A stretch of 49,596 bases of DNA, taken from assembly GCA_944326585.1 (NCBI GenBank), contig CALVEN010000009.1, forward strand, positions 1 through 49,596, read 5' to 3'. Every line of letters starts with the position of its first letter. Position 1 is the first letter of the stretch. Of the stretch, positions 1-49,596 are shown one piece after another. Under the pieces are notes generated by a model, which saw only the letters and a program-made list of their open reading frames with translations, ran no database searches and had not been told where the DNA came from. The stretch comes from Candidatus Gastranaerophilales bacterium. GTDB lineage: Bacteria > Cyanobacteriota > Vampirovibrionia > Gastranaerophilales > Gastranaerophilaceae. The position numbers and the translations under genes are program-made.

Positions 1-242
1 TTTTCGACAAAAAAAATGAGCCTTGTCCCGGAGCAAGGTCAAGCCTTGCCCTCTCGCAAAACGATAATCAATCGTTTTGCTCGGCAGAGTGAGACGCGGC
101 ACCATTTTTTTTTAAGGTGATAATTATTTAAAAAAATAAGGTTTTCGACAAAAAAAATGAGCCTTGTCCCGGAGCAAGGTCAAGCCTTGCCCTCTCGCAA
201 AACGATAATCAATCGTTTCGCTCGGCAGAGTGAGACGCGGCA
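1..242. repeat. Two 100-bp direct repeats carrying a REP-like palindrome
   Basis: Bases 1-101 recur at 142-242 with an offset of 141 and almost no mismatches. Each copy holds a small hairpin (CCTTG/CAAGG) and then a 39-bp palindromic core (51-89 and 192-230) whose arms are CGCAAAACGAT and ATCGTTTTGC, ending in CTCGGCAGAG. The same core is seen again at 13983-14021 and 49453-49491, and its right flank alone (TCGGCAGAGTGAGACGCGGC) at 894-913 just after the RAYT gene. This matches REP/BIME elements, which RAYT transposases mobilise. A short open frame across the second copy (157-342) is not believable as a gene. Confidence 0.85.
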
Positions 243-253
243 ATTTTTTTGCT

Positions 254-311
254 CAAAATCCTTGCGGATTTTGAAGTCCTTGGTTTGTCGGTTGGGCATA
301 CTTGCCCAACA
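254..311. repeat. Pair of hairpins in front of the RAYT gene
   Basis: Two perfect inverted repeats lie directly before the transposase. The first is CAAAATCC-ttgc-GGATTTTG at 254-273. The second is GTTGGGCA-tact-TGCCCAAC at 291-310. The second, with flanks (287-311, 25 nt), recurs in inverted orientation inside the coding sequence at 590-614. Hairpins beside RAYT genes are typical substrates of these HUH-type enzymes. Confidence 0.8.
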
Positions 312-338
312 AAACAAATTTTGTGTTAAAATCAAATT

Positions 339-875
339 ATGAATTACCGCAGAGTATTTGTACCAAACGGATATGTCCACATTATAATAACATCCTATGA
401 AAGAAAGCCTGTATTCATTGATAATATTGAAATATTAAGAACTGCATTCAGAAATGTCCAAAAACTGTATAAATTTGAAATTATTGCAATTTGTATTATG
501 CCTGAACACATTCATTTAATTTTGCATCCTGAAAATATAAATAATTATCCCAAAATAATATCTTCTGTAAAACATTACTTTTCAAGAAATGTTGGGCAAG
601 TATGCCCAACCGACGATTTAAAAATTGGATATAAAAATAAACGTGAAAAAGGAATTTTTCAGAGACGTTACTGGGAACATACAATTAAAGACGAAGAAGA
701 ATTAAATAATCAGATTAATTACATTCATTACAATCCTGTAAAACACGAACTTGTTAACAATGTAAAAGACTGGCAGTACTCCTCTTTTCATAAATTTGTA
801 AAGCAAGGTTTATATAAAAATGATTGGGGCAGTAAAGATGATATTAAAAATATTAAAGATTTAAATTTTGAATAG
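339..875 (+). CDS. REP-associated tyrosine transposase (RAYT, IS200-like Y1_Tnp fold)
   Basis: This 178-residue protein belongs to the single-stranded DNA transposases of the HUH family that act on REP palindromes. The HUH motif is seen as PEHIHLIL at residues 55-62, and the family hallmark YIHYNPVKH at 128-136, with Tyr128 the likely nucleophile. A WQYSSFHKF segment follows at 145-153, as in other RAYTs. No partner gene is expected. Residues 85-91 (VGQVCPT) are encoded by a palindrome that also stands upstream of the gene, and they fall in a linker before the FQRRYWEH block, so they look inserted. There is no Shine-Dalgarno; a TAAAAT box ends 6 nt before the ATG. The gene is intact. Flanking REP-like repeats support the call. 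Confidence 0.9.
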   Translation: MNYRRVFVPNGYVHIIITSYERKPVFIDNIEILRTAFRNVQKLYKFEIIAICIMPEHIHLILHPENINNYPKIISSVKHYFSRNVGQVCPTDDLKIGYKNKREKGIFQRRYWEHTIKDEEELNNQINYIHYNPVKHELVNNVKDWQYSSFHKFVKQGLYKNDWGSKDDIKNIKDLNFE

Positions 876-891
876 TCTTATTCCAGTTACT

Positions 892-919
892 GTTCGGCAG
901 AGTGAGACGCGGCACCATT
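892..919. repeat. Partial REP-family copy downstream of RAYT
   Basis: The bases TCGGCAGAGTGAGACGCGGC followed by accattttt match the right part of the upstream repeat at 82-110. Only the right flank is present, not the hairpin arms. It brackets the RAYT gene with related sequence and may mark the right end of the unit. Confidence 0.7.
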
Positions 920-933
920 TTTTGTAATCAATT

Positions 934-1695
934 TTATGCCTGCTGGTTTGCTATGCGTTTAACGATTTTTAAATATTCCTTTTGTGATTCGTAGACCATT
1001 TCAGAAATGAAATTTATAAACGGCTTAAAGTCATTATGATTTGAGCTTTGTAATGCTCTTATATAATCGGCTCTCACAACAGGCGGAATAATTGTTATAT
1101 TGTAGCCTGCTTGTAATAATGCTAAATTCATTAACAACCTCGCTACTCTGCCGTTTCCGTCAATAAACGGGTGAACGTTTACAAATAATGCGTGTACCAT
1201 TGCAGCATATTCAACAGGGTGTAAGCGTTGTTTTAGATCGTAAAGTTCTTTTATAAAGTCTTTCATTTTGTCGTCTAATTCGGCAGGTGAAGGAAAATCA
1301 ATGTCAGCTCCGGTAACTATTACCTGTTTTGTCCTATAGCAGCCGGCATGTTTGTTATCAATCTTTGAATAAAAAAGACTGTGTAATGTCTTTATATCAT
1401 CTTCCGTAAAGTTTTTTTTCTTTGCCAGTTCCAGCAGTAAATCAAATGCTGCAGCATGTCCGATGGTTTCTAAGTGATCTTTCATTGGTTTTCCGTTTAT
1501 TGTTAAACCGTCTTCCAACACTACCTTGGTTTCAACTAAATCAAGGGTATTTCCCTCTAACGCATTTGAGGAATATGTAAGTCCGATTTTGTAATATTCA
1601 TGTATCTGTTTTAAGGCATCTTTGCTTAGTGGTCTGTATTTGTCTATTTCTGTCTTTAATTTATCAATTTCTACACATTTGTTTTCGTAATTCAT
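934..1695 (-). CDS. Fic domain protein (AMPylase family), class II-like
   Basis: Fic proteins transfer AMP or other nucleotide moieties from NTPs to target proteins. The catalytic motif HPFIDGNGRVAR is complete at residues 175-186. An inhibitory-helix motif of the form SxxxEG (SNALEG, residues 43-48) stands before the Fic core, which is the class II arrangement where the enzyme restrains itself. The length (253 residues) fits a single-domain Fic protein with a short helical N-terminal part and no obvious wHTH or membrane segment. The start is supported by a GTGAGGT ribosome site. No antitoxin-sized partner is adjacent, in keeping with built-in inhibition. The target is unknown. Confidence 0.88.
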   Translation of the reverse strand: MNYENKCVEIDKLKTEIDKYRPLSKDALKQIHEYYKIGLTYSSNALEGNTLDLVETKVVLEDGLTINGKPMKDHLETIGHAAAFDLLLELAKKKNFTEDDIKTLHSLFYSKIDNKHAGCYRTKQVIVTGADIDFPSPAELDDKMKDFIKELYDLKQRLHPVEYAAMVHALFVNVHPFIDGNGRVARLLMNLALLQAGYNITIIPPVVRADYIRALQSSNHNDFKPFINFISEMVYESQKEYLKIVKRIANQQA

Positions 1696-13785: not shown

Positions 13786-14094
13786 CGGTGCCAAAGGCGC
13801 GACAGCATGTTTGTCGGAGTACATATACTTGTTATTGCGAGCGGACAAGAGAGGTACGTCAAGCAGTAGGTCGGCATTGCAATGCCGACAGAAAATTTTA
13901 TTGTCGGGTTAACCCGACCTACAACTCAGTCATCCTGAGGCGAAGCCGAAGGATCTCAAATAAGCAAGAGATTCTTCTTTTCCTCTCGCAAAACAATACT
14001 CAATTGTTTTGCTCGGCAGAGAGCTCAGAATGACAAGAGTACTTTTCCTCGCCCCTTGCGGGAGAGGGGAAAAACATAACCATACTCACTCTAC
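13786..14094. repeat. 309-bp gene-free stretch of nested palindromes and a REP-like core
   Basis: From left to right: GTAGGTCGG (13866-13874) paired with CCGACCTAC (13914-13922), enclosing two perfect palindromes, 13871-13888 (TCGGCATTG/CAATGCCGA) and 13903-13918 (GTCGGGTT/AACCCGAC). Next comes GTCATCCTGAGGCGAAGCCG at 13929, facing CTCAGAATGAC at 14023. Between these arms is a REP-like core (13983-14021). The remainder shows no gene. Confidence 0.8.
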
Positions 14095-49289: not shown

Positions 49290-49366
49290 GGCGCCTGTCG
49301 TCAAGCGGTTAAGACCTCGGATTGTGGTTCCGATATGCATGGGTTCGAATCCCATCAGGCGCCCCA
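49290..49366 (+). tRNA. trnH: tRNA-His (anticodon GTG) with encoded CCA
   Basis: The acceptor GCGCCTG pairs with CAGGCGC over 7 bp, and the extra G at 49290 pairs with C73 as in all histidine tRNAs. The anticodon arm TCGGA-TTGTGGT-TCCGA carries GTG, and the T arm ATGGG-TTCGAAT-CCCAT is perfect. The 3' CCA (49364-49366) is encoded. A T-run follows at once. Confidence 0.96.
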
Positions 49367-49596
49367 TTTTTGAGAATAGAGCCTCTTTGGAGGCTTTTTT
49401 AATGCGCCTGAGGTCTTCTCACCCGCGTTTTGCAAGCAAAACGGGTTCTTCCCTCTCGCAAAACGATACTTAATCGTTTTGCTCGGCAGAGTCATCAGGC
49501 GCCCCATTTTTAAGAATTAAGCCTCTTTGGAGGCTTTTTTAATGCGCCTGAGGTCTTCTCACCCGCGTTTTGCAAGCAAAACGGGTTCTTCCCTCT
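49353..49596. repeat. Tandem 140-bp repeat that includes the tRNA-His 3' end
   Basis: The unit beginning at CATCAGGCGCCCCATTTTT (49353) starts again at 49493 and runs to the window edge with only a few changes (for example GAGAATAGA versus AAGAATTAA). Each unit holds the last 14 bases of the tRNA, a GCCTC-ttt-GGAGGC terminator hairpin, the imperfect palindrome ACCCG..GTTTTGC/GCAAAAC.GGGT, and a REP-like core (49453-49491 in the first). The array probably goes on beyond the window. Confidence 0.9.
49377..49399 (+). terminator. Terminator after tRNA-His
   Basis: GCCTC-TTT-GGAGGC followed by six T and AA. The same structure is repeated 140 nt on. Confidence 0.8.

What the first reader, a model, noticed from the sequence alone, without database searches (positions are those of the whole stretch)
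1..919. RAYT gene with its own REP-like palindromes, which covary between copies
Four full copies of a 39-bp palindromic core are in the window (51-89, 192-230, 13983-14021, 49453-49491), with a RAYT gene at the first two. The copy at 13983 changes CAAAACGAT to CAAAACAAT and its other arm from ATCGTTTTG to ATTGTTTTG. That is a compensating change that keeps the stem. The spread over 49 kb and the conserved pairing suggest a working REP/RAYT system in a lineage where, as far as I know, it has not been described.
Basis: partly seen in the sequence, partly recalled or inferred. Interest (0 to 1): 0.62.

Follow-up and report, generated by a model that had tools for sequence, protein, structure and literature searches.

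The report
Transposase gene inside unrelated tRNA-end hairpin array
The hairpin repeats next to this gut bacterium's REP-transposase gene are real and structurally conserved, but they are a separate repeat found on copied tRNA ends and inside other hairpins; the transposase has its own, different hairpin, one copy of which lies inside its own coding sequence.

Summary
Four 39-bp hairpins ("core39") lie at the stated positions, ten in the 1.70-Mb Gastranaerophilales genome. The copies at 51 and 192 adjoin an intact RAYT gene (339-875). The stem covaries (7 of 10 inner pairs have double changes in 39 variants).

The link between the two fails. Across 146 related genomes core39 is no commoner with a RAYT (mean 0.70 against 0.87, p=0.35). 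The richest genomes (27, 12, 10 copies) have no detectable Y1 transposase. Core39 lies in loops of other stem-loops and on copied tRNA ends. Window 1-919 is an array of tRNA-Phe 3'-end copies; the RAYT sits where the core39 hairpin of one copy should be (RAYT-free form in a same-genus genome).

The RAYT's own REP is GTCG-GTTGGGCATACTTGCCCAAC. It precedes the gene (287-310) and recurs inverted inside it (591-614), encoding VGQVCPTD in frame. It tracks RAYT (7.7 against 1.4 copies, p=5e-9). In 32 of 35 relatives flanking and internal REPs share their arm (permuted maximum 20). REPs inside RAYT genes are published (subclass 2.4, Quentin 2018), so this half extends known biology. I found the tRNA-end core39 family undescribed; what moves it is unknown.

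The parts
51..89 (+). core39 hairpin, copy 1, in a tRNA-Phe 3'-end unit
   Evidence: exact pattern; flank matches the genome's tRNA-Phe end
90..104 (+). TGAGACGCGGCACCA: copy of the tRNA-Phe T-stem/acceptor/CCA end
   Evidence: sequence against tRNA-Phe at G000:C8:55683
192..230 (+). core39 hairpin, copy 2, in a second tRNA-Phe unit
   Evidence: 1 mismatch
252..285 (+). left part of a third tRNA-Phe unit (...AAGTCCTTGGTT), broken off where the RAYT cassette begins
   Evidence: uninterrupted form in L077
287..310 (+). cognate REP: tag GTCG + palindrome GTTGGGCATACTTGCCCAAC, 28 bp before the start codon
   Evidence: abundance follows RAYT
339..875 (+). RAYT gene, 178 aa; HUH motif H57-I-H59, catalytic-type Y128
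591..614 (-). inverted copy of the REP with its tag, inside the RAYT gene; on the + strand codons 85-92, VGQVCPTD
   Evidence: 25-bp inverted repeat of 287-311, 100%; disordered loop in the model
893..917 (+). right remnant of a core39 unit (TTCGGCAGAG + TGAGACGCGGCACCA) where the RAYT cassette ends
13983..14021 (+). core39 copy with the compensating change, in the loop of a GAGATTCTTC...GCTCAGAATGACA repeat
49291..49366 (+). tRNA-His (gtg)
   Evidence: ARAGORN and Rfam
49453..49491 (+). core39 copy in a tRNA-His-like unit (ends TCATCAGGCGCCCCA at 49492-49506); a second unit begins at 49493 and runs off the contig

Best explanation
Two unrelated repeat systems overlap here. (1) The RAYT is a REPtron. 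By homology its Y1/HUH protein should cut single-stranded DNA at a GTNG-tagged hairpin. Its REP is GTCG-GTTGGGCATACTTGCCCAAC, with one copy 28 bp before the start codon and one inverted copy inside the gene, in a disordered loop. The two copies stay matched as REP types change, so the pair is probably the recognised REP/inverted-REP unit, kept in step by selection or by conversion through the RAYT itself (inferred). (2) Core39 is a separate hairpin found in one Gastranaerophilales family plus one other genome of the order. It sits in loops of other stem-loops, often degenerate copies of the ends of a neighbouring tRNA, often in tandem. The RAYT cassette sits where the core39 hairpin of one tRNA-Phe unit should be, which explains why they are neighbours. 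How core39 spreads is not shown; I favour spread as the loop of composite stem-loops through hairpin-driven replication errors or recombination at tRNA ends.
For: Core39 copy number is independent of RAYT in 146 genomes (0.70 against 0.87, p=0.35), and genomes with 27, 12, 10, 5, 5 and 4 copies have no RAYT and no Y1_Tnp match. The REP follows RAYT (7.67 against 1.45, p=4.5e-9). Flanking and internal REPs share the 8-nt arm in 32 of 35 genes (permuted mean 10.8, maximum 20 of 5000) and the tag in 29 of 35 (permuted maximum 28) over six REP types. Of 96 sampled core39 copies, 35 lie within 300 bp of a tRNA, and 26 of these share at least 9 nt with that tRNA against 1.5% for other tRNAs. Flanks pair around core39 more than permuted flanks do (10.3 against 6.75 pairs, 0 of 60). 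RAYT-free form: L077 against L148, right flank 91% identical over 1511 bp beginning at TTCGGCAGAG.
Against: With the strict RAYT cut-off core39 presence is weakly associated (p=0.044; 0.077 for copy number without the window genome). Three of 75 RAYT loci have a full core39-like hairpin within 500 bp and none in 166 kb of distal flank, although both favour tRNA flanks. RAYT could have been lost from core39-rich genomes, or missed in drafts. No test was corrected for phylogeny. Cleavage by this RAYT is untested.
Confidence: 0.8

Rival explanations
1. Core39 is a second substrate of this RAYT, or of RAYTs in general: a REP without the usual tag, mobilised in trans, with RAYT later lost from core39-rich genomes.
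For: Strongly conserved, covarying stem with an asymmetric bulge, two copies next to the RAYT, a weak association at the strict cut-off and core39-like hairpins near 3 of 75 RAYT genes.
Against: No GTNG tag beside core39; no overall association with RAYT and none needed in the richest genomes; the RAYT has another REP that meets the criteria.
Confidence: 0.08
2. Core39 units are the products of a site-specific recombinase that inserts at tRNA genes, each unit ending in a copy of the tRNA 3' end as an att site would.
For: Tandem units of about 90-140 bp ending in the acceptor/CCA sequence of the neighbouring tRNA, tracking that tRNA between genomes (ACGCGGC in the window genome, TTGCGGC in L077 and L069), for His, Phe, Glu, Leu and others.
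Against: Many tRNA types; some units carry antisense 5' halves (Ile, Pro, Leu); many copies are in non-tRNA repeats; units hold no gene. No search for a recombinase was made.
Confidence: 0.25
3. The REP inside the RAYT gene is a neutral passenger insertion in a permissive loop and plays no part in RAYT function.
For: The loop is disordered in the model (residues 87-101 of the alignment, pLDDT under 50); REPs inside unrelated genes are known (PMC3733652), and the published subclass 2.4 insertions are thought to lie away from the active site (PMC6006769).
Against: Same codon position across the clade, tag kept, and arm matched to the flanking REP across six REP types in 32 of 35 genes; the peptide changes with the REP (VGQVCPTD, VGVETPTY, VGLESPTY, VGLVNPTY, VGLVKPTY). 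A few genes have a decayed internal copy (L150, L156, L172, L174).
Confidence: 0.3

Closest known systems
REPtron / TnpAREP (RAYT) with GTAG-tagged REPs (Nunvar 2010 PMC2817692; Di Nocera 2013 PMC3733652; Corneloup 2021 PMC8266576)
   Same: Y1/HUH protein, tagged hairpin next to the gene, inverted partner, copies elsewhere in the genome, abundance linked to RAYT
   Different: Few REPs (12 in the window genome at up to 3 mismatches) and a GTCG tag at the gene
TnpAREP subclass 2.4 = RAYT group 4 (Quentin 2018 PMC6006769)
   Same: [quoted passage not shown] scattered in Cyanobacteria and other phyla
   Different: Y motif YIHYNP instead of YIxNNP, EHIH instead of NH[IFV]H in the window protein, REP foot not three G-C pairs
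Intragenic REPs and rickettsial palindromic elements (Di Nocera 2013 PMC3733652)
   Same: Palindromes translated in frame inside genes
   Different: Here at one fixed codon position in the transposase gene and matched to the flanking REP
REP/BIME-type palindromic repeats (for core39)
   Same: Short conserved hairpin, intergenic, inside composite structures
   Different: Core39 often sits on copies of the ends of neighbouring tRNA genes, in tandem, with sequence matched to the local tRNA; I found no description of such a family in the open-access library

Membership tests
RAYT / TnpAREP | Y1/HUH catalytic core similar to TnpAREP | tested here: met
   NF047646 143.8 bits; 4er8 at E=2e-32; invariant H56, H58 and Y127 in alignment numbering
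RAYT / TnpAREP | Gene beside a tagged REP | tested here: met
   GTCG-palindrome at 287-310; GTAG, GTCG or GTAA in relatives
RAYT / TnpAREP | REP number in the genome linked to RAYT presence | tested here: met
   7.67 against 1.45, p=4.5e-9; not corrected for phylogeny
RAYT / TnpAREP | Mostly single copy, housekeeping-like | tested here: inconclusive
   one in the window genome, but 1-7 matches and many fragments, patchy in the family
RAYT / TnpAREP | Cuts its REP as single strand | not testable with these tools
   needs a biochemical assay
TnpAREP subclass 2.4 (RAYT group 4) | In-frame REP inside the gene between HuH and Y motifs | tested here: met
   591-614, codons 85-92
TnpAREP subclass 2.4 (RAYT group 4) | Y motif YIxNNP and HuH NH[IFV]H | tested here: not met
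   YIHYNP and EHIH in the window protein
TnpAREP subclass 2.4 (RAYT group 4) | Three G-C pairs at the foot of the REP stem | tested here: not met
   foot pairs are G-C, T-A, T-A (criterion)
core39 as REP of this RAYT | Conserved hairpin | tested here: met
   7 pairs with double changes
core39 as REP of this RAYT | GTNG-type tag at the foot | tested here: not met
   no constant tag in the flanks of the sampled copies
core39 as REP of this RAYT | Number linked to RAYT | tested here: not met
   p=0.35; richest genomes have no Y1 transposase match
tRNA-targeted integrative element | Direct repeat of the tRNA end at the far side of each unit | tested here: met
   His, Phe, Glu and others
tRNA-targeted integrative element | Linked recombinase gene or cargo | not tested
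   units of about 90-140 bp hold no gene; no search for a recombinase was made

The most novel reading that the evidence does not exclude
Core39 is the recognition hairpin of an unknown non-Y1 system in gut Gastranaerophilales that duplicates tRNA ends and lodges a hairpin in the loops of tRNA arms and other stem-loops, building tandem tRNA-mimic arrays; RAYTs then use these arrays as landing sites.
Probability: 0.25. Interest if true: 0.72.

Novelty: new variant of a known kind. Interest (0 to 1): 0.5.

Why it matters
It separates two palindrome families that a plain reading merges, and gives the RAYT its real REP. The REP inside the RAYT gene, matched to the flanking REP over six REP types, is a natural series for asking whether RAYT and REP co-evolve and whether the internal copy is part of the substrate or regulates the gene. 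The tRNA-end core39 arrays, if confirmed in closed genomes, would be an unusual repeat that copies the ends of many different tRNA genes; they also break draft assemblies at tRNA genes, as here between contigs C8 and C9.

Tried and rejected
Core39 as the RAYT's REP: rejected on association and on lack of a tag. Rfam on the window: only tRNA-His. Phage origin of core39: no exact match in IMG/VR. The REP pairs about 182 bp apart as deletion forms of the RAYT gene: by eye the spacer does not look like the RAYT 5' part; no alignment was run. Novelty of a REP inside the RAYT gene as such: dropped, since it is published for subclass 2.4. Literature searches for tRNA-associated palindromes in bacteria returned nothing relevant; one query was malformed. 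No fold search was run, because the profile match to 4er8 was clear.

Full report
Setting. The window is contig C9 of a 1.70-Mb draft genome (16 contigs, 99.7% complete). Its closest RAYT relatives are in Candidatus Gastranaerophilales genomes. The RAYT ORF (339-875, 178 aa) matches REP_Tyr_transpos far over its cut-off, Y1_Tnp and solved TnpAREP 4er8. It is the only one in the genome.

The observation. All four core copies are as described and unexpected by chance; the genome holds ten.

The proposed link fails. I searched 146 genomes of the family for the RAYT model (57 positive) and for core39 at up to 3 mismatches (37 positive). Copy number does not differ (0.70 against 0.87, p=0.35). Genomes with 27, 12 and 10 copies have neither RAYT nor any Y1_Tnp match. 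In the window's own genus, five genomes with a RAYT or fragment have 10, 7, 1, 0 and 0 copies and five without have 5, 1, 1, 0 and 0. Core39 is found in this family and one other genome of the order, and in none of the sampled genomes of the rest of the class. A weak association appears with the strict RAYT cut-off (p=0.044).

The real REP. A different palindrome, GTTGGGCATACTTGCCCAAC, lies 28 bp before the start codon (291-310, tag GTCG at 287-290) and recurs inverted at 591-610 with its tag at 611-614, inside the gene. It has 12 copies in the genome at up to 3 mismatches, mostly with GTCG, GTAG or similar tags, and it follows RAYT presence across the family (7.67 against 1.45, p=4.5e-9).

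A REP inside the gene. In 30 family RAYTs and 75 loci from named genomes, partly the same genes, two layouts recur: REP before the gene with an inverted REP just after the stop codon, or REP before the gene with the inverted REP inside, near codon 85. In the second layout flanking and internal copies match gene by gene: 32 of 35 arms, 22 of 35 whole palindromes and 29 of 35 tags, over six REP types. The encoded peptide changes with the REP. All internal-REP genes fall on one side of a moderately supported branch (84/75); the peptide columns were not removed from that tree. The peptide lies in a low-confidence loop after a helix in the model. Quentin et al. 2018 (PMC6006769) reported in-frame REPs inside subclass 2.4 genes, so the architecture is known; the gene-by-gene matching and this host lineage are what is added. 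The permutation test does not remove relatedness between genes.

What core39 is. Its flanks are not random. At 49453 the unit ends TCATCAGGCGCCCCA, like the tRNA-His that ends 87 bp upstream. At 51 and 192 the unit ends TGAGACGCGGCA(CCA), like the genome's tRNA-Phe, which lies near the end of contig C8; C8 and C9 share their terminal sequence there. In relatives with tRNA-Phe ending TTGCGGCACCA the units end the same way, so units follow the local tRNA. Of 96 sampled copies, 35 are within 300 bp of a tRNA, and 26 of these share at least 9 nt with it against 1.5% for other tRNAs. The sample favours one locus per genome plus regions I chose, so 35 of 96 is not an unbiased rate. Other copies sit in loops of unrelated interspersed repeats: GAGATTCTTC...GCTCAGAATGACA in the window genome and two other repeats in G138 and G020. 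Flanks are complementary beyond permuted flanks.

Why they are neighbours. In same-genus genome G116 (no RAYT found) the tRNA-Phe array holds two intact units (L077). In L148, which has the same RAYT protein, the right flank is 91% identical to L077 over 1511 bp, beginning at TTCGGCAGAG, the right end of core39; the left side breaks at GGTT of a tRNA-Phe unit, as in the window. So the RAYT cassette took the place of a core39 hairpin, with loss of part of the array. RAYT genes as a group lie near tRNAs more than expected (10 of 75 within 500 bp; about 2 expected from 44 tRNAs in 1.70 Mb) and sometimes near core39 (3 of 75), which fits a shared landing zone.

Shown and inferred. Shown: positions, covariation, association statistics, matching of the two REPs, tRNA-end identity, RAYT-free form. 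Inferred: that the RAYT cuts its REP, that the internal REP matters, and how core39 spreads. Limits: draft genomes, contig breaks in these repeats (counts are lower bounds), no correction for phylogeny, pattern search limited to 3 mismatches.

Noticed in passing
L092 933-1136, L104, L108 1501-1701, L111, L113, L115; window genome C14:710-1153: Two inverted REPs about 149-184 bp apart around a similar non-coding spacer recur in several genera: a REPIN- or MITE-like element of this REP.
   Followed up: partly
window 1-77 and end of G000:C8 (L126): Contigs C8 and C9 end in the same sequence inside the tRNA-Phe array, so they are probably neighbours and the array may be collapsed.
   Followed up: partly
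G116 (same genus): 36 copies of the REP but no RAYT or other Y1 transposase found: lost, missed, or REPs moved in trans.
   Followed up: no
75 RAYT loci L148-L227: Ten have a tRNA gene within 500 bp, about five times the expectation: RAYTs in this group may favour tRNA flanks.
   Followed up: partly
window 934-1695, minus strand: A Fic-type protein (HPFIDGNGRVARLL) lies directly beside the RAYT cassette.
   Followed up: no
L001 1-50, L077, L010, L086: Some core39 units mix sense and antisense pieces of the neighbouring tRNA, including antisense 5' halves for Ile, Pro and Leu, which looks like template switching.
   Followed up: partly
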